Source of the DNA: Desulfobacterales bacterium
GTDB taxonomy: Bacteria > Desulfobacterota > Desulfobacteria > Desulfobacterales > JAEINQ01
DNA: 64,000 nt
Assembly (NCBI GenBank): GCA_016342285.1
Contig: JAEINQ010000039.1
Span: 1-64,000 of the forward strand
Direction of reading: 5' to 3'
Below are positions 87 through 53,647 of the stretch, piece after piece; positions within the stretch are counted from its first letter, which is position 1, and the number at the start of each line of letters is the position of its first letter. The position numbers and the translations under genes were made by a program. Under the pieces are notes generated by a model. The model was not told the DNA's origin. It saw only the letters and a list, made by a program, of their open reading frames with translations, and made no database searches.

Positions 87-2852
87 CTATGCTGCCTTCG
101 ACAGTCGAACGGCGCAGACTTTGTATTCGGGAATGCCCGAGACCGGGTCCAGGGCCGCGTTGGTGAGCCGGTTGGCAGCGGCCTTGGCATAGTGAAAGGG
201 GATGAAGACCGTGCCGGGCACCGCCTTGGCCGAGACCTGGATGCGGGCGTGAATCTCTCCCCGGCGTGAGGCGATGGTGGCCAGTGCCCCGTCCTCCAAT
301 CCCAAATTCGAAGCGTCGGTCGGGGCGATCTCAACGAAGCTCTCCGGGGCCCGCTCGTTGAGTCCGTCGGTTTTCATGGTCATGGTGCCGGTGTGGTACT
401 GGTAGAGGACCCGACCGGTGGTCAGGTACAGGGGGTATTCGTTGTCGGTCTCTTCGGCCGGTACCCGGTAGTCGATGGCATGAAACATCCCCTTGCCCCG
501 GGTGAACTGTTCGCCGTGAAGGATCGGCGTGCCCGGATGCTCCGGTGTGGGGCAGGGCCAGTGAAGGCCGGTCTTTTCGATGCGTTCGTAGGAGATGCCG
601 GCATAGGAGGGGGTAACGGTGCGAAGCTCTTCAAAAATGGCTTCCGTGTTGTCGTAGCCCATGGCATATCCCATCCGTGAAGCGATGGCGCAGGTGATCT
701 CCCAGTCGTAGCGCGCCTCTCCGGGCGGCTGAACCGCTTCTCGAATCCGCTGGACCCGTCTTTCGGTGTTGGAGAAGGTGCCGTCTTTTTCGGCAAAGCA
801 CCGGGACGGCAGGACCACATCGGCTGTCCGGGCGGTTTCGGTCAGAAAAATATCCTGGACCACCATGAAGTCGAGGTGCCCCAGGCTCGCCTCGGCATGG
901 TTGAGGTCCGGGTCACTGACCAGGGGGTTTTCGCCGATGATGTACAAGGCCTTTAGTTCCCCCGCGTGGGCCTTGGGGATCATCTGGGTGACGGTCAGCC
1001 CGGGTTTGTCCGAAAGGCCGGAAATGTCCCAGGCCGCCTCCATCTTCTTGCGGGCGTCCTCGCTGGCCACCGGCTGGTAGGCGCTGAAAACATTGGGCAG
1101 GCCGCCGAAATCGCAAGCCCCCTGGACGTTGTTCTGGCCTCGCAGGGGATTGACCCCGCCGCCGCGCTTTCCCATGTGACCGCAGAGCATGGCCAGGTTG
1201 GCCAGGCTCTTGACGTTGTCGGTGCCCGACGTATGCTGGGTGATACCCATGCAGTAGCAGATGCTGGCCACCCCGGCCGTGGCGTACATGCGCGCCGCGG
1301 CCTCGATGTCCGCGGCGGCGATGCCGGTGATCGTTTCCACATGGGCGGGGGTGTATGTTTCAACGGTCTTTTTGAGCGCCTCGAAGTTTTCCGTCCGTTT
1401 TTCCACGAAGTCGTGATCGTAAATATCCTCTTTGATGATCACGTGCATCATCCCGTTGATCCAGGCCACGTCGGTGCCGATGTTCTGGCGAAGCCACAGA
1501 TCGGCAAATCCGGTCAGTTTGATACGTCGCGGATCAACGGCAATCAGCTTGGCTCCCCGGCGGGTCACCGCCCGTTTGATAAAGGTCGAGAGTACCGGGT
1601 GGTTTTCGGTGGTGTTGGTGCCGGTGACCAGGATCACGTCGGCTTCCTCGATGTCGGCGATGGTGTTGGTCATCGCTCCGCTTCCAAACGCTGCGGCCAG
1701 ACCGGCCACGGTGGAGCTGTGTCAGAGACGGGCGCAGTGATCGATGTTGTTGGTCTTTAAAACCGCCCGGGTGAACTTGTTGGCGATGTAGTTTTCCTCG
1801 TTGGTGATCCGTGCCGAGGTGAGGACGCCAATGCTGTCCGGACCGTGGGTCGCTTTGATGTCGCCGAGTTTTTGGGCCACCAGGTCCAGGGCCTCGTCCC
1901 AGGAGGCGTCGGTCAGTTCACCGTTTTTACGAATCAGGGGCCGGGTCAGGCGTTCGGCGGAGCCGATGAAATTAAAACCGAACCGTCCCTTGACGCAGAG
2001 GCTGCCGTGGTTGGGGGGGGCGTTGACCCCGGTGACCTTGACCACGCGGTTGTCTTTAACGTGCAGGTAAAGCTGGCATCCCACGCCGCAGTAAGAGCAG
2101 GTGGTGCGCATGTTTGTGGTTTCCCAGGGCCGGACCGCGTACCGGACGTCTTTTTCCACCAGGGCGCCCACCGGGCAGGCCTGGACGCATTCGCCGCAGA
2201 AGACGCAGTCGGAATCCTTCAGTGGCTGGTCGCCGGCAGCGATGATTTTGGCCGCGGCGCCCCGATAGCCGAAATTAATGGCGTTGTTGACCTGAACTTC
2301 GTTGCAGGCCTGAACGCAACGGCCGCACTGAATGCAGCGGGAGAAGTCCCGGACGATGAAGGGGTTGACGTCTTCTAAGGGGTATGGGGTCTCGGTACCG
2401 GCAAATCGTTCGCCGGAGACCTGATAGCGGTAGGCCAGATCCTGCAGGCGGCAGTCGCCCCAGACCGGACAGAGTTCTTCGCTCCGGTCGTCTTGGTGAA
2501 CCTGAAGTTGAAAGGCGGTCCAGTCCTGATCGTCGGAGCCGCGTACGGCACAGTTGTGGTTGCCCGAGGAGAGCATGAGCTGGATGATCAGGCGCCGGGC
2601 CTCGACGACCTGCGCCGATTCGGTCCGGACGACCATGTTGTCGGCTGCCGGGGTGCTGCAGGCAGTGAGCAGGCTGCGTGCCCTTTCGACCTCCACCACG
2701 CAGATGCGGCAGGCCCCCGTGGGGGTGGTCCCTTTGAGGTGGCACAGGGTTGGTATGTCAACGCTGTTTCTCCGGGCGACCTCCAGAATGGTTTCGCCCG
2801 GGGTGAACGTGAATTCGTTGCCGTTGATGACGATGACGTGCTGTGGGTCCAT
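87..2852 (-). CDS. fdhA: Formate dehydrogenase alpha subunit with N-terminal 2Fe-2S and 4Fe-4S ferredoxin domains; selenoprotein read through UGA at 1722-1724
   Basis: ORFs 1722..2891 and 87..1709 lie in the same frame and join as ...[29 protein letters not shown]...; molybdopterin oxidoreductase and ferredoxin Cys motifs; start at MDPQHV with GGAGAGG upstream. Confidence 0.93.
1695..1724 (-). promoter_or_regulatory. UGA(Sec) codon plus bSECIS-like hairpin of fdhA
   Basis: UGA then 18 nt to a GGUCU apical loop closed by GGCC/GGCC; as I recall E. coli fdhF, it has the same loop at the same spacing. Confidence 0.85.
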
Positions 2853-3128
2853 GGGGACGGCCTCTCCTCGTATGGGTGCTGGCGGTCGCAAGCTCCGGCG
2901 ACGCGGTGTCTTGCCTCAACGCTTCGAAATGAAATGCAAAACCGCTTCCACGATGCGCAGTTGGGAGCGCTTTGTTTGCCCGGTTCCGACGCCCGTTTGT
3001 TCCTATATTACGACGGGGGTTTTGTCAATGATGGGCGTTGGTGGGATAAAAATCCAGGTCCAAAGGAGGGGGTGATGGTTTGTCCCTGGCAGGGGCTGGG
3101 TTACCGATCCCATATCAGTTTGGAGTGC

Positions 3129-14964: not shown

Positions 14965-17900
14965 TTACGGGGCTTTGGTGGTCGGTGGGTTTTCGGCGAG
15001 GTGGGCGATGGCGGTCAGCACCCGGTCGAGTTCTGTCGTCACACGGGACAGGTTGGCGTTGATGGCCGTCAGGTCCGATTCGGCGCAGGCATTCTCCAGG
15101 GCATGGGCGGCCCGGTAAAGGTCGTTGGCCGAGACGTTGCCGGCGGCCCCTTTGAGGGAATGGGCCATCCGCCTGGCTCTCCCGTGATCCCGGCGATCGA
15201 GAAGGGCCAGGAAATCCTGGTTGAAATGGCGGTAGACCTCCCCGTATTCCTGAAGGATGCTTGCATACAGATCCCAGTCTCCGCCAAGGCGATCCAGGCC
15301 TTCGGCAAGATCAATTCCCTCCAGCACCATGGGGGCGCGGGGATCGTCGCAGGGCACGTCAGCCGGAACACCGTTGACGCCCCCGGGGCCGGACGCCAGC
15401 CGGGAGACGTTTCGTCGCAGGACGGCAAACAGTTCCTGGCGGTCGATGGGCTTGGGAACGTAGTCGTTCATGCCGGCCTCTATGCATTTCTCCCGGTCGC
15501 CGTCCATGGTCCGGGCGGTCATGGCGATGATGGGCAGTTCGGCCCGCGTTTTTTCCCGCCGCAGTTCCCGGGTCGCTTCGATGCCGGAGCGTTCGGGCAT
15601 CTGCACGTCCATGAGTACGGCATCATAGCGATATTTTGTGGCCATTTCCACGGCTTCGTGTCCGTTTTGGGCAATGTCGACATCGATACCGGCCAGGGAG
15701 AGGATTTCCGAAGCCACCCGCTGATTGACCGGATTGTCTTCGGCCAGCAGCACCCGTAACCCGGAAAACTCGTCCAGGCAGACCATGCCTGAGGAGGTCT
15801 CTGGTGGCGTTGAGGCCGAATAGCCGCAGACCAGCAGGATGGTTTCCAGCAGCACCGACCGCTTGATGGGTTTGACCAGGAAATAGGTGTTGCCGGCCTC
15901 CCTGGCCCGATGGATGTCATCGTCCTTGCCGCTGGCGCTGATGATGACCACTGGCGGCGGGTTTTCTCCCTGACCGATGATTTCGGAGGCGGAGATGCCG
16001 TCCATGCCCGGTAGCCCCACGTCCATGACCACCAACGCCAGGCGGTTGTTCCGGTCGGCGCCTTTGACCATGGCCAGGGCCGCTTCGGCGGAGGCCGCCG
16101 TTCTCGTGTTGAATCCGAATCGGTTCAGGTGGCGCTTTAAAATGCGTCGTGTGGTGGCATTGTCTTCCACCAGCAGCACGTCCCTTCCCCGTAGCGATTC
16201 GGGCAACCCCGGCATGTCTTCGGCCTTTTGGTCCCTGACCGTGTCGAAAGCGGCGGTGAAGTAAAAGGCGCTGCCGTTGCCGGGCCGGCTTTCGACCCAG
16301 AGGGTCCCCTCCAGCATGGCGATGATCTGCTTGCAGATTGCCAGCCCTAATCCCGTGCCGCCGTATTTTCGCGTAATGGAGCCGTCGGCCTGGGTAAAGG
16401 CATCAAAGAGTTTTTCCTGGACCTCTAGGGGAATGCCGATGCCGGTATCGCGCACACAAAAGAGCAGTTCCACCCTGTCCGGTTCGTATTGGCGGGTCTG
16501 GGCGGAAATGACCACTTCACCGGTTTGGGTGAACTTGACCGCGTTGGAGACCAGATTGACGATAACCTGTCGCAGCCGAAGCGGGTCTGAAATCAGCGTT
16601 GTCGGCACATCCGGGGCGATATCCACGATCAACTCAATCCGTTTATCCGCGGCATCGTCCACGAAGAGATCCACCGATTCCTCGACGACCCGCTGAAAGT
16701 CAAAGGGGATGCTTTCAACGTCGAGTTTTCCGGCCTCGATCTTGGAAAAATCAAGAATGTCGTTGATGAGACCCAGCAGGGCGTGGCTCGATGACCGCAC
16801 GATTTCCAGGTAGTCTCTTTGCTTGGCTGTCAGGTCGGTTTCCAGGGCCAGGTCGCACATGCCGATAATACCGTTCATGGGGGTTCGGATTTCGTGGCTC
16901 ATGTTTGCCAGAAAGTCGCTTTTGGCGATATTGGCCGTTTCGGCGTCCCGGGCCAGTTGATGGGCCCGTTCCGTTGTCTCTTCCAACTGCCGGGTGCGCT
17001 CGGTCACCCGTTGCTCCAGTTGCCGGTTGAGTTCTCTGATCCGGTCCTCGGCTTTTTTCCATTCGCTGATGTCGGTCACAACGGCAATGAGACAGTCTTC
17101 ATTTGCGTAGCGAAGGGGTTTGGCCGAAAAGAGGGTGTCTATGATCCGGCCTTGCCGGTTCTTGTACTGGACTTCAAAACGGTCGACTGCTCCTTTTTCC
17201 CGAAGGATGCCGATCAACCGGTCGCGATCGGACGGGTTGGCAAAGATTCCGATTTCATATGGTGTTTTCCCGATTACCGCATCTCTGGAGAAACCGGACA
17301 ACTGGCAGAAGGCGTCGTTGACCATGATGTACCGGCCGTCTGCGACCCGTGTCACGGTGATGGAATCCGGGGCGGTTTCCATCACGCGCCGATAAAGCGC
17401 TTCGCTTTCGCGCAGGGCCGTTTGGCTCCGCTCTCGCTCGGCGATGTCCCGGACGAGGAAGGCATTGGCCTTTTGCAGTTCGACGGTGCGATGCTGCACC
17501 CGCTGTTCAAGGATCTCGTTGATGCGGGCCATTTCGTGGCTGGTCTCACGGGCCTTGCAGCGCAGGGTGTTGTAAGTGTCGGCCAGCAGTTGAAATTCTT
17601 CGGCGGAGTTGAGAAAGACGTCCCGGTGTTCAGTGGCATCGGTCTCTTTCATGGCTGCGATCAGGGTTTCCAGGGGCGAGAGGATCAGGTGGCGAAACCG
17701 CACGCGAAAAAGCAGGGTCAGGACAGTGATGGTCAGGATGGTAAACAGGGCGGAAAAAATGCAGATGCCGACCTGGGTTTGCATGAGGGTGGCGTGGTTT
17801 CGGATCAGAATGGTGGCATAATGGGCGTCGCCGTCGCCGGGGATGGGAACCGGATCGTAGTAGAGGGTGCATGTGTTGCCGTTCATCGTGACGTCCTCGA

Positions 17901-18783
17901 CATAGCCACTCTTGCCGCCGAGCACATCGGTGGCGATACGGGAGACCTCCGGGTCCCAGTCCAGGGCCACAGGTTTGGTTTTATGGTACCCGGCCGCATC
18001 CTGGACAGGCTTGCCGCCTGCATCGGTCACCAGGACGTTTCGGGTCAGTTTGAGCAGGTTGTATTGTTCCCGGATTTTGTTCTGTTCCGGATGCGCGATG
18101 ATCACCCCCTGATTGTCAATGACGATGGCATAGAGGTCTTCGGAGGAAAGATATCGATACACCATCTGCTGGAGGCGATCAAAATTGATGTCGGTACCGA
18201 TGATGCCGATGAACCGGTCGTTTTGGCGGATGGGGTGAAAGGCCGACGCCACCGGTTTGTTGCCGGTCATGGAGTAATAGGATTTGGACATGAAGGGCCG
18301 GTATTGGGTGACCTGGGTCAAGCGCTTAAACCACCAGCGCTGCCCCCGTTGGCCCAGCGGCCCAAAACTGCGCGCCACCTGATTGCCCATGGCATCTTGA
18401 ACAAAGATCAGGTCGGTGAACCGGTAGTCGGTCTGCATGCGTACCAGCAGTGGATGACCGCTGTCCGGCCCCAGGGGTTTTTGCGTCCGGTAGTCGCGGG
18501 CGTAGGCTGCCTGCCGCCGTGTCCAATCCGGTTCGGCCAAGGCTACGGCCTCGACCATGGCAGGGTTGATGGAAAGCAGGTAGTTCAGGCTGAAGGCATG
18601 GTCGACAAAGCCCTTGACGCTGGAGGCCAGGCCCTTGTTGTGCAGCCGGTCCTTTTCGATGGCGTCCCGGGTGTAGCGGTGGAGCAGATAGCCGGTGATG
18701 GTCACCGAGGAGACCATCACCGATATCAAAACGGTCAGTATGATCAGGCCGTCGAACTGAGACGCAATTTTTTTTTTCTTCAT
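14965..18783 (-). CDS. Hybrid sensor histidine kinase (Cache, PAS, HisKA/HATPase, REC, REC, HPt)
   Basis: FLANMSHEIRTPMNGIIGM; KYGGTGLGLAICKQI; two REC domains (VVMDVGLPGMDG, VLMDVQMPERSG); HPt AHSLKGAAGNV. Confidence 0.95.
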   Translation of the reverse strand: MKKKKIASQFDGLIILTVLISVMVSSVTITGYLLHRYTRDAIEKDRLHNKGLASSVKGFVDHAFSLNYLLSINPAMVEAVALAEPDWTRRQAAYARDYRTQKPLGPDSGHPLLVRMQTDYRFTDLIFVQDAMGNQVARSFGPLGQRGQRWWFKRLTQVTQYRPFMSKSYYSMTGNKPVASAFHPIRQNDRFIGIIGTDINFDRLQQMVYRYLSSEDLYAIVIDNQGVIIAHPEQNKIREQYNLLKLTRNVLVTDAGGKPVQDAAGYHKTKPVALDWDPEVSRIATDVLGGKSGYVEDVTMNGNTCTLYYDPVPIPGDGDAHYATILIRNHATLMQTQVGICIFSALFTILTITVLTLLFRVRFRHLILSPLETLIAAMKETDATEHRDVFLNSAEEFQLLADTYNTLRCKARETSHEMARINEILEQRVQHRTVELQKANAFLVRDIAERERSQTALRESEALYRRVMETAPDSITVTRVADGRYIMVNDAFCQLSGFSRDAVIGKTPYEIGIFANPSDRDRLIGILREKGAVDRFEVQYKNRQGRIIDTLFSAKPLRYANEDCLIAVVTDISEWKKAEDRIRELNRQLEQRVTERTRQLEETTERAHQLARDAETANIAKSDFLANMSHEIRTPMNGIIGMCDLALETDLTAKQRDYLEIVRSSSHALLGLINDILDFSKIEAGKLDVESIPFDFQRVVEESVDLFVDDAADKRIELIVDIAPDVPTTLISDPLRLRQVIVNLVSNAVKFTQTGEVVISAQTRQYEPDRVELLFCVRDTGIGIPLEVQEKLFDAFTQADGSITRKYGGTGLGLAICKQIIAMLEGTLWVESRPGNGSAFYFTAAFDTVRDQKAEDMPGLPESLRGRDVLLVEDNATTRRILKRHLNRFGFNTRTAASAEAALAMVKGADRNNRLALVVMDVGLPGMDGISASEIIGQGENPPPVVIISASGKDDDIHRAREAGNTYFLVKPIKRSVLLETILLVCGYSASTPPETSSGMVCLDEFSGLRVLLAEDNPVNQRVASEILSLAGIDVDIAQNGHEAVEMATKYRYDAVLMDVQMPERSGIEATRELRREKTRAELPIIAMTARTMDGDREKCIEAGMNDYVPKPIDRQELFAVLRRNVSRLASGPGGVNGVPADVPCDDPRAPMVLEGIDLAEGLDRLGGDWDLYASILQEYGEVYRHFNQDFLALLDRRDHGRARRMAHSLKGAAGNVSANDLYRAAHALENACAESDLTAINANLSRVTTELDRVLTAIAHLAENPPTTKAP

Positions 18784-18841
18784 GCGGACCTTTGCTGCCC
18801 CGGGGAGAGATTCAGGCCTAACTTGAGCGTTTCCAATCCGG

Positions 18842-19096
18842 TCAGGATTTTTTCGACTGGATCTGCTGGCGCAGCATCTGCTTGAGTCCTGTCAGGGTTC
18901 CTTTCCACACGGCATCTTCACCGGCCATGAGGGCGACGATGACGTCCTTTTCCACACTGACCTCAATCACGATTTCTTCGTCACCGACGGAAAAGACGGC
19001 CTCGGCCCATCTTTCGGCCGGCAGGCCGGTGGTTTCACAGTCAAAGTCGGTTCGCAATTCGCCGGTCATGCGGATGTCGTCCATAATTTTCCTCAT
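18842..19096 (-). CDS. Hypothetical small acidic protein
   Basis: Intact 84-aa ORF next to the gcvT-SHMT fusion. Confidence 0.5.
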   Translation of the reverse strand: MRKIMDDIRMTGELRTDFDCETTGLPAERWAEAVFSVGDEEIVIEVSVEKDVIVALMAGEDAVWKGTLTGLKQMLRQQIQSKKS

Positions 19097-22022: not shown

Positions 22023-24398
22023 ATGACCGAACTATCTGTTCCCAAGGAGAAGACCGTTGTTCAGGTCGGGGTTCGCGCCCTGGTCGAACGGGTTCTTCGA
22101 AGCGGCGATCTGGAGGCGGGGTTTGTCGGTTCGGGCCGGGCGCTGGATGGTATCCGTGCCCACCAGACCGTTCAGCGGATGCGGCCGGCCCAATATCAGC
22201 CCGAGGTGCCGGTATCCCTGAAAGTTTCCACCGAGCGCTTTGTCCTGACGGTCAGTGGGCGCATCGACGGGGTGCTGACCGATGAGGCCCGGCCGGTGGT
22301 TGAGGAGATCAAGACCACGGCCAGGCGTCTGGACGACGTGACGCCGAGCCCGGTGCACTGGGGGCAGGCACGGGTCTACGCCCATCTCTACGCCTGCCAA
22401 ATGGCACCGCCGTCCGTAACGGTCCGGCTGACCTATTACCAGCTCGACTCCGGAGTGATTCGTGAATTCGAGGAGCAACAGGACCCGGAGGGGCTGGAAC
22501 AGTTTTTCACGGACCTGGTGGGTCGGTATCTGGACTGGGCCGGTGTCCAGGCGGACTGGAAAGCGCAGCGGCGCGCCTCCATCGAAGCGCTCGACTTTCC
22601 CTTTTCTCGTTACCGGCCCGGGCAGCGGGCCATGGCGGTGGCCGTCTACCGGGCCCTGGTCGGACGGTCCCGGCTCCTGGTGCAGGCATCCACCGGTATC
22701 GGAAAGACCATGGCGGCGATCTTTCCCGCCGTCAAGGCCCTGGGCGGTGAGGGCATCGACCGGATCTTCTACCTGACTGCCCGAACCACGGGACGCCTCG
22801 TGGCCGAAAAAGCCTTTAACGCACTGCGCGCCGGGGGATTGGCTCTAAAGGTCCTGACCCTGACGGCCAAGGACCGCGTCTGTTTCAATCCCGACAGCGC
22901 CTGCCACCCGGATGAATGCGAATACGCCCGGGGATTCTACGACCGGCTCGATGGCGCGGTCGAAGCGCTCTTTTCCCGGGAGGCCTTCACCCGACCGGCC
23001 ATCGAAGCGGCTGCCCGCCACCACCGCATCTGCCCCTTTGAGTTCTCCCTGGAGATGGCGCTTTGGTCGGACGCCATCGTCTGTGATTACAACTATGCCT
23101 TTGACCCGCGGGTTTACCTGCGCCGGTTCTTTGGGGACAACGGCGGCGACTCGGTGTTCCTTGTGGACGAGGCCCACAACCTGGTGGACCGATCCAGGGA
23201 GATGTTTTCGGCCGAAATCCGCAAACAGGCGTTTCTGGACACCCGTCGGGAAATCGGCAAGGCCCTGCCCGGGATCTATCGCCTTTTGGGGCGGATCAAC
23301 GCCCGACTGGTGCGAGCCAGGAAGGAATCGGCCGCGGCCGGGGGCTGGCAATGGGCGGCGGCGGCGCCTGAGGACCTCGTTCCCCTGCTTCGGGATTTTC
23401 TTGCCGCAGCCGAGCGGTGGCTGGTTAAAAACCTTCCAACCCCGTTCCGGCCTGCCCTTCTCGATCTTTATTTTGCCGTTTCCGGCTTTATCCGGGTATC
23501 GGAACGCTACAACGAGAGCTACGCCACCTGCTATGAGCAGTTGGGAAAGGATTTGCGGGTCAAGCTCTTTTGCATGGATCCGTCCGGGCAGATGGCCGAC
23601 GCTCTGGACCGTTGCCGAAGCGCGGTCTTTTTCAGCGCCACCCTAACCCCGTTTGACTACTACCAGGCACTTTTCGGCTGCCGCGATTCGGCCCATACCC
23701 TCTGCCTGCCGTCACCATTTCCGATGGAAAACCTGGGCCTTCTGGTATTGGGCACCATCTCCACCCTCTATCGGGACCGAGAGCGGACCGCCTCTGCGGT
23801 CTGCAGTGCCCTGGTGGCCCTGGTGCGGCATAGGCGGGGCAATACCATGTTCTATTTCCCCTCCTACGCCTATCTGAAGATGATTTATGAGATGTTTTCC
23901 TCGGATTGTCCCGAGGTGGAAACCCTGGTGCAAACTCCGTCCATGGGAGAAGTCGACAAGGAGGCTTTTCTGGAGCGGTTTGCCCGTGACAACCCGGAGT
24001 CCCTCGTCGGATTTGTCGTCATGGGTGGAATTTTCGGTGAAGGGATCGATCTGGTGGGCGATCGGCTCAGTGCCGCCGCCGTCATCGGGGCCGGTCTTCC
24101 GGGCATCACGCCGGAGCAGGAACTGATCAGAGGGTATTTCGACGACCATTCCGGAGAGGGGTTTGCCTATGCCTATCAGTTCCCCGGGTTTACCCGTGTG
24201 CTCCAGGCGGCCGGACGGGTAATCCGGACGGGGAAGGATCGGGGGGTGGTGCTGCTCATCGACCGGCGCTTTGCCACCCTTCCATACGCCCGTCTTTTTC
24301 CCGGGACCTGGCAGCCCCGGGCCGTAAAAAACCCCGAACAGATCGAACAGTGTTTGTCCAGGTTCTGGTCGGCGGAGGAGGGCAATTCAAGCCCCTGA
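22023..24398 (+). CDS. DinG/XPD-like ATP-dependent DNA helicase with N-terminal PD-(D/E)XK-like region
   Basis: SRYRPGQRAMAVAVYRAL...QASTGIGKTMAAIFPAVK; Cys cluster CFNPDSACHPDEC; FLVDEAHNLVDRSREMFSA; QAAGRVIRTGKDRG. Confidence 0.9.
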   Translation: MTELSVPKEKTVVQVGVRALVERVLRSGDLEAGFVGSGRALDGIRAHQTVQRMRPAQYQPEVPVSLKVSTERFVLTVSGRIDGVLTDEARPVVEEIKTTARRLDDVTPSPVHWGQARVYAHLYACQMAPPSVTVRLTYYQLDSGVIREFEEQQDPEGLEQFFTDLVGRYLDWAGVQADWKAQRRASIEALDFPFSRYRPGQRAMAVAVYRALVGRSRLLVQASTGIGKTMAAIFPAVKALGGEGIDRIFYLTARTTGRLVAEKAFNALRAGGLALKVLTLTAKDRVCFNPDSACHPDECEYARGFYDRLDGAVEALFSREAFTRPAIEAAARHHRICPFEFSLEMALWSDAIVCDYNYAFDPRVYLRRFFGDNGGDSVFLVDEAHNLVDRSREMFSAEIRKQAFLDTRREIGKALPGIYRLLGRINARLVRARKESAAAGGWQWAAAAPEDLVPLLRDFLAAAERWLVKNLPTPFRPALLDLYFAVSGFIRVSERYNESYATCYEQLGKDLRVKLFCMDPSGQMADALDRCRSAVFFSATLTPFDYYQALFGCRDSAHTLCLPSPFPMENLGLLVLGTISTLYRDRERTASAVCSALVALVRHRRGNTMFYFPSYAYLKMIYEMFSSDCPEVETLVQTPSMGEVDKEAFLERFARDNPESLVGFVVMGGIFGEGIDLVGDRLSAAAVIGAGLPGITPEQELIRGYFDDHSGEGFAYAYQFPGFTRVLQAAGRVIRTGKDRGVVLLIDRRFATLPYARLFPGTWQPRAVKNPEQIEQCLSRFWSAEEGNSSP

Positions 24399-42756: not shown

Positions 42757-43368
42757 TTACAGATAGGGGGCAATGGCGCGGTGGAAGGTTCTGGCCATGA
42801 CAGCGTAACCGTCGGCGTTGGGATGGATGGGATCGCTCATGAGGTTGCGGTTCCCCATGATCCCTTCAAAGACATTGGGGATCAGCACCGACCCGGTCTC
42901 TTGGGCCAGTTGGCGGTAGGCCTCGTCAAACCCCCGGCCATAGAGCGGAATGTCGATGCCGCCGATGACCACCAGGGCGCCGGCTTTTTGAATCTCCACC
43001 ACGATGCGGCGCAGATTGTCAAAGGCCGCCTTCCGGGGTACCCTGTTTTTCAGATCGTTTCCGCCCAGGGTCAGCAGCACCAGGCGCGGGGAATGGGAGA
43101 GCACATCGGCTTCCAGCCGGTTCAGGGCCTGGGCCGTGGTGTCGCCCGGAACGCCGGTGTTGATCACCGGCTTTTCGATCAGGGCCGACAGTTGGCTGGG
43201 GTAATCCATGCCGTCCGGGGCGCCGGTGCCGTAGGTCAGGCTGTCACCGAAACAGATGATGTTCTCTCCGGCAGGCTCGGCGTTGGTGATGGGCGCCGCC
43301 GGCCGGGACCAACGAATGCCGATCCCGACCAGCACCACGGCGGCTATGACCAGAACGGTCTTTCTCAT
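42757..43368 (-). CDS. GDSL-type arylesterase / lysophospholipase (TesA-like)
   Basis: IICFGDSLTYGTGAPDGMDYPSQL...LLTLGGNDLKNRV...SDPIHPNADGYAVMA. Confidence 0.92.
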   Translation of the reverse strand: MRKTVLVIAAVVLVGIGIRWSRPAAPITNAEPAGENIICFGDSLTYGTGAPDGMDYPSQLSALIEKPVINTGVPGDTTAQALNRLEADVLSHSPRLVLLTLGGNDLKNRVPRKAAFDNLRRIVVEIQKAGALVVIGGIDIPLYGRGFDEAYRQLAQETGSVLIPNVFEGIMGNRNLMSDPIHPNADGYAVMARTFHRAIAPYL

Positions 43369-43988
43369 GGGAGGGTCTCCCGTTTAGCCACACCGAGCCG
43401 GGTCAACATGGCCTCGATGGCTTCGTAGGGCTGGGCGCCTTCGATAAACGCCCCGGCCATGGCAAAGGTCGGCACCACGGTGATGCCCATGGCGCGCGAC
43501 CGGGCCCAGTCGTTGTCCACCGCTTCCCGGAAAAGCCCGTCGTTGACAACCGCGGCGGCCGCTTTCGGATCCAGCCCCACCGATGCGGCGATGTTTTCCA
43601 GCACATCGGTGCGGTAAATGTTCAGGCCGTCGGCAAAATAGGCTTTGAATGCGGCCAGGTGAAAAGCGTCTCCTTGCCCCTGGGTCTCGGCCCACTTGCC
43701 CAGCTCCTGGGCCCGGCGGCTGTTGAAAGTCATCTGCCGGTCGCCGAATGGGAGTCCCAGGTCTCGCGCCGCCTGGCGCAACCGGTCCAGCATGGCGTCG
43801 ATGTCAAAATCCCGGCCCCTGAACAGTTCCTCCAGGGTCCGCCCATCGGGCGGTGTTTCCGGATGCAGGGGAAAGGCGGTCCAACGGATCGAAATGTCGA
43901 ATTGCCTGGCGATGCGTTCACTACGGCCCGTAATGAAGTAGCACCACGGTCAGATGTAGTCGGAAAAAATCTCAAGTGTTGGAGACAC
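43365..43988 (-). CDS. DsbA-family (FrnE-like) oxidoreductase; predicted selenoprotein with U-P-W-C active site (UGA at 43950-43952)
   Basis: GTG start with AGGAGG 9 nt upstream: VSPTLEIFSDYI-U-PWCYFITGRSERIARQFDISIRWTAFPLHPETP... continuing in frame into ORF 43365..43793. The UGA replaces the first Cys of the FSDYxCPWC motif. Confidence 0.88.
43917..43952 (-). promoter_or_regulatory. UGA(Sec) codon plus bSECIS-like hairpin of the DsbA-like gene
   Basis: UGA, 12-nt spacer, stem UUCAUUAC, loop GGGCC, stem GUAGUGAA (8 bp with one G-U); loop begins 21 nt after UGA. Confidence 0.75.
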
Positions 43989-44335
43989 GCTGTAATACCT
44001 CCTATCTTATTGAATAACTTAACTTTTCTAACGCAGACCTTGACAGGTCAGTTTGCTCGATAAGTTCAGTAGGGGCTATGAATTGGACAAAACATTGTCC
44101 ATCTATTGTACTATGTCAAACGGAATATGGTTCAGCCCCAATAAATAACGACAACACCAATCATCAATGTAAAATGTTATGGGTGCCTGTAACTGATGGC
44201 ATGGCTGTATGTTGAATCCTTGTCAGGGCTGACGAGGGTGCTGGTTCGGATGATGGCGTCGGGCTCTTCGGTGGTGGAGATCAACGAAAAGAATGTCTAA
44301 GTTGTTGTAAGTATATGAATAATTTATCCTAAGTC

Positions 44336-44376
44336 GGATAGGTTGCATTCCAGTTTCATCAAAATGCAACCTATCC
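44336..44376. repeat. Perfect 13-bp inverted repeat at the left edge of the AT-rich accessory region
   Basis: GGATAGGTTGCAT-(15 nt)-ATGCAACCTATCC, then a partial third copy GCAACCTAT. Confidence 0.9.
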
Positions 44377-44726
44377 GCAACCTATTTCTTCCATTTGCAG
44401 CCTCGATTAAAATAGCCCGTCTGTACGATTCTCAAATTAAACCCGAGAGTGTGTGTTCTTGCCTCCCGAGACATGATCATGATCATCGCACAAAATATAA
44501 AATATTATTGTTATTACAGTGGTATAATGATCCTTCAACTGATCAGGCGTGATCGTAGAATTTCGGTTTGTATAAAATATACAAATATATCAATGTGTTA
44601 AAATGCCAGGCCACGTCTGGGCTACCATATATGAATGTACATGGATGACGTTGTTGGGTAAGATGTCCAAATTGGTGTGGTTAATGAATAAACAATGTAA
44701 AATCAGGTTAAAATAGAACCTTTATC

Positions 44727-47582
44727 ATGGGAAATTCAGATATATTCATCGAAAAACAAGAGCTCCCACTAGTATGTGATAATCACGATTGCTCTTTCCA
44801 GCTCGGTTCTGGCGCTCTCGTTGAGGCAGTTAAGGAATATGGCCTTGTCATGGCTGATTGTGGCGAGACGGTTTACCAAGGAACCACCTGCCCTAAGTGT
44901 AAGCGTACCATAGCCCGTGCCTTTCCTCGTGACCGGCTTCTTATAGACCCATCAAAATTCATTGCTGCCCCAATCCCGGACGCCAGACAGAACCTGGTGG
45001 AGCAGGTAGAGGACAGAGCAAACCATATCGCCGGGGCCAGCCGTCTTGGCTTCCATTGGATTCCAGCATGGGATGAACAGGCTATCACGCATGGCGAGCT
45101 GGTAGCTCATATCCGCCGCTACAAACAACCCCAAAGACCTCATTACCCACCCGTCGCTATGATAGTGACGGAATTTGAACGTCGCCTAGAGCAAGAAAAC
45201 AGACTCATGGCGGTGGATGATTCCCCTGAAACGTATATTCGGCGGTTCTACCCGGATGTTCCGAAGTATCGAAACATCTTGACGGTTCTCGCCCCTGGTA
45301 GAGCCTCGGTAAATACAACGATCAATATGATCCATTACGAGGGCGATTCTGATACTGAGCAGCAAATACGGAAACGCGCATGGATAGATCTGTTTGACGA
45401 GGTTTGGGGTATATCGGTCACACAGACCGCTCAGGAGAGGATAAATCTGGCAGGATTTGGCCACTTGCAGTTGGGGGATATTGAAAACGAGTTTTATCGA
45501 AGAATTCGTCTGGCAACAGAATGGGATGTAATAGAAGAATGCCGGGAAAAGCTTCAGTGGGTTGGGGGATGGAAAGCGCTGGTTTCGTCCATAAAAAATC
45601 ATGTTGATGAAATTATCCAATCCGCCTGTGTTGAGTTAATGAGCTCATGGCAAGTGGAAGAAAGGAGATCTGAACTTTCAAGCTGGAAAGACCATTTTGA
45701 GAAGGGGATGGCTCTATTCATTGATGCGCCAATGGGGCTCGGTAAAAGCCATTCAATTATAGATGCTCTCACAGAAAAAAAGCAGTTGTCAGCGGTAATA
45801 TTTATGCCGACAAATCTACTTTGTGAGGAGATGGCACTCCATCTGAAGGTTCGCATTGCGATAAAGCTGGGTATTCCATGGATTGAGTACAAAGATAAAG
45901 TTAAAGACAGGAATTTCCGTGTTGAAGATGTTTATTATGCGGATGGCATAAATGAGGATGAATGCCCCCATTTTGGTGCCATCGTAAAACGTTACAGGGC
46001 AAACTGGGCTGTGAAAGGAGATTTCTGCTCAGAGTGCGTCAATACTCAAACATGTAGGTTCCGGTCACATGACAAGTTTATTCGACGCGCCAGGATAGTA
46101 GTGACAACGCACAAACAGTACGATCGGTTCTATGGTAATCGCGATTTGCAAAAGCGTCTCATCTATGGGAATGACGGAAATCAACACGAGATTGATAGAA
46201 ATTTGTTCATTATAGATGAAGATCTCTTAATGACAAATTGTTACCAACCAATACAGCTTACCTTTGAAGAGATAGCGAAAACATGCAGCGTTATAATTGA
46301 CTTTTTAGATGAGGAAGATGGGGACGATAAAGATGAAATGGTTTCGCTGATAGAATGCCTTATCGGAAAAATCAATTTGTGCCAAGAAACTTCGATTATT
46401 CCGCCGTTGGTTCCAAAATTCAAATTTAGTAAATATCTAAAGGAATCTTGGGGTGAAAATATTCCAACAATTCACGATCTATCTCCTGACAGGTTTGACG
46501 GCCAAGATTTCGTTGGTAACCACTTGGAGGTCATCGAGAACGCGATTAGAAAAGGGCTTTCAGTACAAAGATATCCTCAAGCCAAAGGTGGCCTTGATTC
46601 AGCCGGAGGTACTGTAAAAAGTGTTTTTTTGCCCAATCCAAAGGAATACAATCTTCAGAGGATGCCGCCTCATGTCTTTTTTGATGGAACACTTCTTGAT
46701 AAGAGATTGATTGAGCATAAATTGCGTAACGTTAAAATGCGGACAATTCGCTACGATCTAAAAAAAGTGCGAACCTATAAAATTTGGCAAAATGAGTACA
46801 CCGATTTTCCAAAATATCGCCTCCGAAACGATATGCCGAAGATAGAATCTATACTAGATGAAATTTTTTTGAAAAGGGGGGCTGAAGAAAATTACTTCAT
46901 TATTTGCTCGAAGGGATTGAGACAGTATGTCGATCAATATATTAAAGAAAAATACGCTGGATTCCAAATAGTTACGGAGCATTATCGAAATCTACGTGGT
47001 AAAAATTCTGCGAAACATTGTAATGTTTGTATTGTGTTAGGCAGTTTTATACCATCTGATGCTGTTGAAATTGCAGCGGGTATTGATTTCATTCAAGAAA
47101 TTTTACACAAGGAAAAATATCCGATAAAAACTAAGGATACTGTCTGGTCTTTTCAGACGAATAAATTTGTGCGCAGATATAAAGAAAAATATGGTGTTGT
47201 TCAAGTATTTGCTAACGCTTTGAGACAGACTGAACACAGACAGGCGTTAGCGAGGACAAGATATATTTACCATGATGTTGATTTTTATATTTTTTCTAAA
47301 GATCGGGTAGCGGATTATGAGCCATTTTTTAGGGGTGCCAAGGTAACGCCATGCCGTGCAGATCTCTTCAAGCCAATGCCGAGATACAAACATCCAGACT
47401 GCAATAAGGAATCTGTTAAGAACGCGGCGATGGAATGGCTGGAAACGCATGACACGGTAACGGCTACCGAGATTTACAATGAATATGGAATACGAAGGCA
47501 AACAGTCGGTAAATTTCTATATTCTTTATGCGTTAAGGGAATACTGACCAGAATTGGCAAGACAAAGTATGGTCTGCCATAA
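44727..47582 (+). CDS. Large P-loop helicase-like protein with N-terminal zinc ribbon, Cys cluster and C-terminal winged-helix-like region
   Basis: CPKCKRT; Walker A-like DAPMGLGKSHSIIDAL; CPHFGAIV...CSECVNTQTC between Walker A and Walker B-like LFIIDEDLL; C-terminal ATEIYNEYGIRRQTVGKFLYSLCVKGILTRIG. Confidence 0.7.
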   Translation: MGNSDIFIEKQELPLVCDNHDCSFQLGSGALVEAVKEYGLVMADCGETVYQGTTCPKCKRTIARAFPRDRLLIDPSKFIAAPIPDARQNLVEQVEDRANHIAGASRLGFHWIPAWDEQAITHGELVAHIRRYKQPQRPHYPPVAMIVTEFERRLEQENRLMAVDDSPETYIRRFYPDVPKYRNILTVLAPGRASVNTTINMIHYEGDSDTEQQIRKRAWIDLFDEVWGISVTQTAQERINLAGFGHLQLGDIENEFYRRIRLATEWDVIEECREKLQWVGGWKALVSSIKNHVDEIIQSACVELMSSWQVEERRSELSSWKDHFEKGMALFIDAPMGLGKSHSIIDALTEKKQLSAVIFMPTNLLCEEMALHLKVRIAIKLGIPWIEYKDKVKDRNFRVEDVYYADGINEDECPHFGAIVKRYRANWAVKGDFCSECVNTQTCRFRSHDKFIRRARIVVTTHKQYDRFYGNRDLQKRLIYGNDGNQHEIDRNLFIIDEDLLMTNCYQPIQLTFEEIAKTCSVIIDFLDEEDGDDKDEMVSLIECLIGKINLCQETSIIPPLVPKFKFSKYLKESWGENIPTIHDLSPDRFDGQDFVGNHLEVIENAIRKGLSVQRYPQAKGGLDSAGGTVKSVFLPNPKEYNLQRMPPHVFFDGTLLDKRLIEHKLRNVKMRTIRYDLKKVRTYKIWQNEYTDFPKYRLRNDMPKIESILDEIFLKRGAEENYFIICSKGLRQYVDQYIKEKYAGFQIVTEHYRNLRGKNSAKHCNVCIVLGSFIPSDAVEIAAGIDFIQEILHKEKYPIKTKDTVWSFQTNKFVRRYKEKYGVVQVFANALRQTEHRQALARTRYIYHDVDFYIFSKDRVADYEPFFRGAKVTPCRADLFKPMPRYKHPDCNKESVKNAAMEWLETHDTVTATEIYNEYGIRRQTVGKFLYSLCVKGILTRIGKTKYGLP

Positions 47583-48004
47583 CCGTTATCCAAACCCGCA
47601 AGCATGTTTCAACAGAAGGGGGATAGGGCCAACATCAGCGTCAGCCTTTCCGTACGTACGGAAACCTCACCCTTGGTCCCCGTTTCCAGCTTGCCCCACC
47701 CAAAAGCCCTTTGCACAGCCCCAGCGCTCCATTTTCAGCCTATTTTACTTCTGCCCGAGCCGAAAGTACTCCGAAGAAAAAGGACGCCATAAATCGTATC
47801 CTGCTTGCCCTGTGCCAAAGTGCCGTCCAATCTGTCTTGGATGCCACTGGACATTTACCCATCCACCTTGGAAACAACCCCAAGAAAACAGCCAGAAAGG
47901 GCAAGGAAAGCGCTTACAATCTGACCAGAGCGACATTTTGTTATTGGCAATGCTATGTTATTTCAGTTGGATAGAGACAGCATGATGCTCATGATGACCT
48001 TATC

Positions 48005-48400
48005 GTGAAAACTGAACACTCAGGTCCAATCGGCGTCCACTTTTCAAGGGAACACGGCCGGATTACCCTCAAGGCCTGGCTGGCGATGCCGACCCGCTCC
48101 CCGGAAAGCCCGTCGGCCAAACCTGCCGCCGATTCCAAAAATGGCGTCAGCGACCATGACCGGGAACTGCATGTTGAAATCGCCGACGACGGGGTCGGTA
48201 TTGCCGAGCCATACCAGGAGAGCATCTTCAAGGCGTTCTTCCAGGTCCAGGGGGGGCGGCAGGACAAGGCCCCCGGCACCGGCATGGGGCTTTTCATGGC
48301 CAGGCGCCTGGCGGAACTTCTGGGCGGAAGGATTTCGGTGAAAAGTGAAGGCGAAGGAACCGTTGCCGCATTAAACCGGAGATCGTCTGATGTTTCGCAC
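48005..48400 (+). pseudogene. C-terminal fragment of a histidine kinase (HATPase only)
   Basis: HVEIADDGVGIAEPYQESIFKAFFQVQGGRQDKAPGTGMGLFMARRLAELLGGRISVKSEGEGT; no N-terminal kinase portion upstream. Confidence 0.75.
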
Positions 48401-48506
48401 CAAGATAAAGCAGTACTTGGTACTTACTTACTGCGATGACGATCTGTCGAAATGGTTGGTTGCATTGGTTTTTTGGCTGCTGAAATTACACAACGTTTAA
48501 GGGGGG

Positions 48507-52999: not shown

Positions 53000-53047
53000 T
53001 GGCGGGAGCGACGAGACTCGAACTCGCGACCTCCGGCGTGACAGGGC
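53000..53047 (-). tRNA. Truncated tRNA-Asp(GTC) 3' half, probable integration (att) scar
   Basis: Minus strand GCCCTGTCACGCCGGAGGTCGCGAGTTCGAGTCTCGTCGCTCCCGCCA: anticodon loop CTGTCAC, T-loop TTCGAGT, CCA; no 5' half upstream. Confidence 0.8.
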
Positions 53048-53647
53048 GATATATTCAATGATTCCAGCGTGTTCCACCTATTTTCACATCCATTGAAAGC
53101 CGTTTAGAGCCGTCTAAAGCCGTCTAAAAAGCCGTCTGGTCACCCAGGCGGTCAGGCGGTATGGACAATGAAACACTACCCTTCCCAAGCACCGTAATCA
53201 ACCCCAAGATTTTTGCGACAGTATCCACAAAACCGTGACACCTGGATATTGTGTGTCTGTGGTACCCGTCACGGCGTAATTACACCTGGACACCGGAAGC
53301 GTAACGGGGCACCAAAGAACCATTACATAGTGTAATAGTATTATGATTACAAGGTAATAGCAATTACACCAGTGTCCCGTCACGCTTGCCCTATTGTTTA
53401 AGAGAACACTTTAATTCATTTTAAAATCCAGTGTGAAAAAGGTTTGAAATGATAATAATTTCGGCTGTAATCGTCCCGGTGTCATCGATGGCGACATCAG
53501 TCTGCACATCGCCCTGTTCCAAGCGACAGGCCCACACGATCTGCGGGACATTGGAAAAATGGTTGCGATACGGGAGCACTGGCTGTACGTTGCCACACTA
53601 AATCTATGGTTTTACTACGGTATTACCGCTACGACAGGAAAGAGCAG

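What the first reader, a model, noticed from the sequence alone, without database searches (positions are those of the whole stretch)
44727..47582. Unassigned 951-aa helicase-like protein with a Cys cluster between the Walker motifs
It has an N-terminal CxxC zinc-ribbon region, a GLGKS Walker A, a C-x20-C-x2-C-x5-C cluster, then FIIDED as a Walker B-like motif and a C-terminal winged-helix-like region. A Cys cluster between Walker A and B recalls XPD/DinG Fe-S helicases, but the rest is not familiar. The gene is notably more AT-rich than its surroundings, suggesting recent acquisition.
Basis: partly seen in the sequence, partly recalled or inferred. Interest (0 to 1): 0.6.

Follow-up and report, generated by a model that had tools for sequence, protein, structure and literature searches.

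The report
Rare island-borne DinG-like helicase gene
This gene encodes a rare, horizontally moving DNA-unwinding enzyme that looks like a distant cousin of the iron-sulfur helicases DinG and XPD, with extra zinc-binding and DNA-binding ends, and it is carried on mobile genomic islands among anti-virus genes, so it may be a new kind of bacterial defence or island-maintenance protein.

Summary
The 951-aa ORF is real, has every motif described, and is far more AT-rich than its surroundings (42.5% against 58.1 ± 3.1% GC).

The protein is no longer an orphan. Three full-length relatives (35-38% identity) lie in other genomes of the same order. All four between-Walker cysteines and all four N-terminal zinc-ribbon cysteines are invariant.

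Three lines point to a divergent XPD/DinG-like SF2 helicase: a shared partial match to the CasDinG profile (best E 2.7e-10), Cys cluster and motifs I-III in DinG/YoaA register, and a 143-156-aa gap between motifs II and III (arch-sized; 30-58 aa in four other SF2 proteins measured). Fe-S binding and helicase activity are inferred. Family profiles are missed, the second half is weakly placed and structure prediction failed.

The family is very rare (4 of about 390 genomes searched in its class, in four different families). Two copies sit in ~20-kb tRNA-Asp islands with 70% identical integrases; one adjoins a type I restriction-modification system, the other lies near restriction-endonuclease-like and NOV_C genes. 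The third copy stands alone beside a tRNA; the window copy stands alone.

Most likely a mobile, probably anti-mobile-element Fe-S helicase without a recognised nuclease. Main rival: an island-maintenance helicase. New variant of a known kind; function unproven.

The parts
44727..47582 (+). 951-aa zinc-ribbon / XPD-DinG-like helicase / winged-HTH protein
   Evidence: ORF; three full-length homologs
44727..45296 (+). N-terminal module (residues 1-190) with C17-C22-C55-C58 zinc ribbon at 44775-44900; module also found in other, unrelated proteins of the order
45726..45749 (+). motif I / Walker A APMGLGKS (residues 334-341)
45963..46055 (+). four-cysteine cluster C413, C434, C437, C443 (proposed 4Fe-4S site)
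   Evidence: invariant in all members; in register with DinG/YoaA
46095..46112 (+). IVVTTH after the cluster (residues 457-462), counterpart of VVVANH/VVVVNH in DinG/YoaA
46206..46223 (+). motif II FIIDED (residues 494-499)
   Evidence: D497-E498-D499 invariant
46224..46676 (+). about 150-aa insertion between motifs II and III, proposed arch domain
   Evidence: spacing 143-156 aa in the family, 156 aa in most DinG-like proteins of the order, 30-58 aa in UvrB, RecQ, RecG and HsdR
46677..46691 (+). motif III FFDGT (residues 651-655), counterpart of FFSAT/FTSAT
47238..47261 (+). motif VI-like RQALARTR (residues 838-845)
   Evidence: R838-Q839-A840, A842, T844-R845 invariant; assignment by eye
47400..47561 (+). 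C-terminal winged helix-turn-helix (residues about 892-945)
   Evidence: weak matches
44000..48000 (.). AT-rich block that carries only this gene (approximate edges)
   Evidence: fine GC profile
44335..44377 (.). perfect 15-bp inverted repeat, 13-bp loop, about 350 bp upstream of the gene; operator or hairpin, unproven

Best explanation
The gene encodes a divergent member of the XPD/DinG-like branch of superfamily 2 helicases. It has a RecA1 domain with a four-cysteine, probably 4Fe-4S, insertion, an arch-like insertion, a RecA2 domain, an N-terminal zinc-ribbon module and a C-terminal winged HTH. Proposed mechanism (inferred): the zinc ribbon and/or winged HTH load it on DNA; it translocates on single strands, probably 5' to 3' as in DinG/CasDinG, with the Fe-S domain and arch splitting the duplex; because no nuclease domain is recognised, it would act by stripping or unwinding invading replication or transcription intermediates, or by handing ssDNA to a nuclease encoded elsewhere. 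It spreads horizontally: two copies are on tRNA-Asp genomic islands, one next to a type I restriction-modification system and one near restriction-endonuclease-like and NOV_C genes. An anti-mobile-element role is the most likely function. Shown: motifs, conservation, rarity, patchy distribution, two islands. Inferred: Fe-S cofactor, helicase direction, defence role.
For: All 8 cysteines invariant in the 4 members. PADLOC typeIV_DinG matches all 4 members over Walker A to the VTTH region: 2.7e-10, 3.5e-10, 2e-4, 0.0023. hhalign puts C434/C437/C443, IVVTTH and motif II in register with EcDinG/YoaA. With motif I removed, YoaA and the second DinG-like group score 3.9-4.1 sd above shuffled nulls; six other SF2 proteins at most about 1.9 sd. 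Motif II-III spacing 143-156 aa, as in DinG-like proteins (156-211), against 30-58 aa in UvrB, RecQ, RecG and HsdR. A compound Cys-plus-motif signature hits only DinG, YoaA and this family in the held DNA. Islands: integrases 70% identical, att copies of the tRNA-Asp 3' half, type I R-M genes adjacent in G294, REase_II-like and NOV_C genes nearby in G317. Patchy distribution: 4 of 390 genomes, four families.
Against: No Pfam helicase profile passes its cut-off: DEAD 19.2 bits against 26, no DEAD_2 or Helicase_C_2. With motif I included, UvrB scores as high as DinG. Against the order's best-conserved DinG group (g1) the motif-I-free score is at its null, and EcDinG is only about 2 sd above. Motifs V and VI are only loosely alignable. 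AlphaFold models are low confidence (pLDDT 41 and 49) and the fold search is uninformative. No phage or plasmid relatives and no defence assay. Two of four copies have no defence neighbours, and the gene is one of only three shared by two otherwise different islands, which also suits an island-maintenance role.
Confidence: 0.5

Rival explanations
1. It is an XPD/DinG-like helicase, but its job is replication, recombination or stability of the genomic island that carries it rather than defence.
For: Only the integrase, this gene and one small ORF are shared by the two tRNA-Asp islands; the G317 island also carries Rad52-like and RecB-like exonuclease genes.
Against: In G211 and in the window the gene stands alone without an integrase or island backbone; no origin-like repeat array beside it.
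Confidence: 0.27
2. It is an SF2 ATPase of another branch whose four cysteines bind zinc; the resemblance to DinG is convergent.
For: No curated helicase profile passes its cut-off; UvrB scores as high as DinG with motif I included; fold unsolved.
Against: CasDinG profile match in all members extends past motif I through the Cys cluster; arch-sized II-III spacing; in-register alignment to DinG and YoaA.
Confidence: 0.15
3. It is a housekeeping DNA-repair helicase, an accessory DinG/YoaA of this lineage.
For: DinG relatives do repair in E. coli (general knowledge; PMC10450177 introduction).
Against: Present in 4 of about 390 genomes in four families, while the window genome already has an ordinary DinG-like gene at 23.8-24.3 kb.
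Confidence: 0.04

Closest known systems
E. coli DinG and YoaA (XPD/Rad3-like Fe-S SF2 helicases)
   Same: Cys cluster between motifs I and II followed by VVxxH and DE; similar I-II spacing; large arch-type insertion between II and III; motif III position
   Different: First Cys 20 aa before the second (73 aa in DinG); DED instead of DEGH/DEAH; diverged motifs V and VI; added N-terminal zinc-ribbon module and C-terminal winged HTH; no Pfam DEAD_2/Helicase_C_2 match
CasDinG (type IV-A CRISPR helicase; PMC10450177)
   Same: Best helicase-profile match of all libraries (2.7e-10); helicase plus accessory N-terminal domain, no nuclease
   Different: CasDinG has a vestigial FeS domain, here all four Cys are intact; no csf genes found and no repeat array resembling CRISPR beside the gene
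Hna (single-gene anti-phage DinG-like protein; PMC13381803)
   Same: DinG-like SF2 core in a stand-alone gene of similar length (845 aa)
   Different: Hna lacks the Fe-S cluster and has a C-terminal PD-(D/E)XK nuclease; here there is a Cys cluster and a winged HTH, and no nuclease profile is matched
Desulfobacterales DinG-like proteins with an uncharacterised N-terminal domain (review PMC11981726)
   Same: DinG-like core with an additional N-terminal domain in a related bacterial group
   Different: Those were found with an E. coli DinG query at 1e-5; this family scores far below that against DinG, and its N-terminal module is a zinc ribbon

Membership tests
XPD/DinG-like SF2 helicases | Walker A and DE-box motif II | tested here: met
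   G[LT]GK[ST] conserved and DED invariant
XPD/DinG-like SF2 helicases | Four Cys between motifs I and II, followed by [IV]Vx[NT]H | tested here: met
   invariant Cys; in register with DinG/YoaA
XPD/DinG-like SF2 helicases | Arch insertion between motifs II and III | tested here: met
   spacing only, 143-156 aa; fold of the insertion not shown
XPD/DinG-like SF2 helicases | Helicase_C_2-type motifs V and VI (QxxGRxIR) | tested here: inconclusive
   QA[LI]A[RS]TR in place; no Helicase_C_2 profile match
XPD/DinG-like SF2 helicases | XPD/DinG fold | tested here: inconclusive
   pLDDT 41 and 49; fold search without significant match
XPD/DinG-like SF2 helicases | 4Fe-4S cluster and 5'-3' helicase activity | not testable with these tools
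   needs biochemistry
CasDinG (type IV-A) | csf genes and CRISPR array at the locus | tested here: not met
   neighbours scanned with PADLOC/Pfam carry none; no CRISPR-like array beside the gene in the four loci
CasDinG (type IV-A) | Match over the whole CasDinG profile | tested here: not met
   only positions about 29-193 of 575
Hna / ExoDinG | Fused nuclease domain | tested here: not met
   no nuclease family in Pfam, NCBIfam or PHROG scans

The most novel reading that the evidence does not exclude
A nuclease-free, stand-alone defence protein built on an intact Fe-S DinG/XPD-type helicase, in which a zinc-ribbon module (reused in other proteins found beside restriction-like and methyltransferase-like genes in this order) and a winged HTH provide target recognition.
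Probability: 0.28. Interest if true: 0.62.

Novelty: new variant of a known kind. Interest (0 to 1): 0.43.

Why it matters
The DinG-like immune helicases read here, CasDinG and Hna, lack a working Fe-S cluster. A mobile relative that keeps all four cysteines and has zinc-ribbon and winged-HTH ends in place of fused nuclease or CRISPR partners would test whether an Fe-S helicase motor alone can restrict mobile DNA. It also marks a family of tRNA-Asp islands in this group that would be worth mining.

Tried and rejected
Close-relative scans of viral contigs, phages and plasmids gave nothing. The first genome-contig scan with the single sequence failed; a scan with the family alignment found the same three relatives. 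No member in the phylum sample: the extra hits were winged HTHs only. AF2 on the full length and on the RecA1 fragment gave low-confidence models; Foldseek was uninformative and is not used. hhalign scores including motif I do not separate DinG from UvrB, so a motif-I-free test was made. I first took the neighbouring DsbA gene as truncated by the insert; it is a full-length TGA-containing (probably selenocysteine) gene, so that boundary argument was dropped. I first took the tRNA fragment at 53 kb as a possible edge of the element holding the gene; comparison with the bounded islands shows its island lies to the right, so it does not contain the gene. The island integrase type was not found at close identity in this genome. 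CRISPR-like repeat arrays near the gene were looked for and not seen.

Full report
CHECK OF THE OBSERVATION. The ORF at 44727-47582 (+) is intact, 951 aa. Gene GC is 42.5% (GC3 0.41). Stretches of the same length elsewhere in the window average 58.1% (sd 3.1), and most neighbouring genes have GC3 of 0.70-0.80, the two just downstream 0.59 and 0.64. The AT-rich block spans about 44.0-48.0 kb and holds this one gene.

HOMOLOGS. No curated family passes its cut-off in Pfam, NCBIfam or PHROGs, and phmmer against PDB finds nothing. A whole-genome search of the class found three full-length relatives at 35-38% identity: G211 (JAUVJO010000079.1), G317 (JAHLLS010000008.1) and G294 (RPRI01000052.1). 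The class sample (390 genomes), the order sample (390, overlapping) and a search of the 242 genomes of the class at least 90% complete find no others; counting the window there are four members, in four different families (G211, at 89% completeness, falls outside the last search). A 395-genome phylum sample adds only winged-HTH hits. A motif scan of 84,980 species with the family alignment gives the same three; it needs near-exact matches to two short motifs and so can miss diverged members. No relatives in IMG/VR, phage or plasmid collections.

CONSERVATION. In the four-member alignment all four between-Walker Cys, all four zinc-ribbon Cys, G337-G339-K340, D497-E498-D499, FFD-x-T (651-655) and R838-Q839-A840 ... 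T844-R845 are invariant.

WHICH HELICASE BRANCH. PADLOC's CasDinG model (PDLC01439) matches all four: G211 2.7e-10, G317 3.5e-10, G294 2e-4, window 0.0023, over roughly Walker A to IVVTTHxQY. Profile alignment to E. coli DinG and YoaA places C434, C437, C443, the VVxxH strand and motif II in register, and in YoaA and the order's own DinG-like group also motif III (FFDGTL against FTSATL/FFSATL). Score alone does not separate DinG (36.5), YoaA (36.6) and UvrB (37.8) when motif I is included. With motif I removed, YoaA (26.9) and the second DinG-like group (27.7) stand 3.9-4.1 sd above column-shuffled nulls; E. coli DinG is at about 2 sd and the first DinG-like group is at its null; UvrB, RecQ, Cas3, RecG, HrpA and HsdR are at most about 1.9 sd. 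Topology agrees: motif II to III is 143-156 aa in the family, 156 aa in most DinG-like proteins of the order (164 in one), 211 in DinG and 171 in YoaA, but 34 in RecQ, 30 in RecG, 55 in UvrB and 58 in HsdR. A compound signature (Cys cluster, hydrophobic strand with [NT][HY], DE box), defined after seeing the family, hits only DinG, YoaA and this family in 218,620 residues of held six-frame ORFs. I conclude it is a divergent XPD/DinG-like helicase at about 0.8, with the second RecA half and the fold untested: AlphaFold gave pLDDT 41 and 49, and Foldseek nothing significant.

ACCESSORY DOMAINS. The N-terminal module is not specific to the helicase. Proteins of 430-956 aa in four other genomes of the order share C17/C22/G39/C55/C58/E157/R173. 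By my reading of their sequences, neighbouring genes include a UvrD-like helicase, a type III restriction Res-like protein and an adenine-methylase-like protein; these neighbours were not scanned against libraries. The C-terminal winged HTH is supported by weak but repeated matches.

GENOMIC CONTEXT. G294: an exactly bounded ~20.6-kb island, tRNA-Asp (L010 1765-1842), tyrosine integrase (1930-3090), and a 49-nt, 98% identical copy of the tRNA 3' half at 22366-22414 of the joined L010+L011; the helicase (16087-19095) is followed by hsdM, hsdS and hsdR. G317: a 19-kb island between two tRNA-Asp 3'-half copies (joined L008+L009 9086-9134 and 28330-28379, the latter at the contig end), an integrase 70% identical to that of G294, with a REase_II/EVE protein and Rad52-like and RecB-like genes inside; a NOV_C protein starts close to the distal att (the Rad52 call is by eye). 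Between these islands only the integrase, the helicase (49%) and a 132-aa ORF are shared. G211: the gene stands alone 340 bp downstream of the 3' end of tRNA-Val. Window: the gene stands alone in the AT-rich block; a tRNA-Asp att copy lies at 53000-53048, but its island extends to the right, away from the gene. In all four genomes the gene is more AT-rich than the rest of its locus.

FUNCTION. Rarity, scatter over families, island carriage and restriction-type neighbours in two of four cases make an anti-mobile-element role the best single guess (about 0.5 for the whole statement). The sharing of the gene by two islands with one integrase type also suits an island-maintenance helicase (0.27). 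No nuclease domain is recognised, so any defence would rest on unwinding or stripping, as proposed for CasDinG, or on a partner nuclease. Direction, cofactor and target are inferred from DinG/CasDinG (PMC10450177, PMC11981726) and not shown here.

CAVEATS. Four sequences only. The window genome (8.5% contamination) and the G294 and G317 genomes (6-7%) are fragmented assemblies with some contamination, though each gene is on a contig with ordinary chromosomal or island flanks. Start codons are not verified. Literature searches showed no description of this family in the held open-access library, which is not the whole literature.

Noticed in passing
window 43365-43988 (-): DsbA-family protein with GTG start, in-frame TGA (43950-43952) giving SDYI-U-PWCY in place of CPWC: probable selenoprotein; the genome has a tRNA-Sec (C75:73008-73101, 75.4 bits)..
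   Followed up: partly
window 53000-53048 (-) to contig end: tRNA-Asp 3'-half att copy of the same class as the G294 and G317 islands; an island seems to run right from here to the contig end, with a DnaG-like primase (weakly like the primase part of RT_UG29), a 778-aa radical-SAM protein and an HU protein.
   Followed up: partly
L024 1462-3000, L025 421-1710, L026 1-1734, L027 2-1336, L039 97-1713: Unassigned proteins sharing the N-terminal zinc-ribbon module; in L024, L025 and L039 the neighbour looks like a UvrD-like helicase, type III Res or adenine methylase (by eye).
   Followed up: partly
L010 15883-15954 and 19308-19377; similar at window 53346: About 72-nt direct repeats (78%) upstream of both the helicase and hsdM in the G294 island, with a similar AT-rich element before the DnaG-like ORF in the window; possible shared regulatory site.
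   Followed up: partly
window about 23814-24317 (+): An ordinary DinG-like helicase (Helicase_C_2, 2e-37) is encoded in the same window; most DinG-like proteins of the order carry an extra N-terminal domain, by eye PD-(D/E)XK-like.
   Followed up: no
window 48005-48439 (+): Histidine-kinase ATPase fragment without its N-terminal part at the right edge of the AT-rich block; suggests past rearrangement.
   Followed up: no
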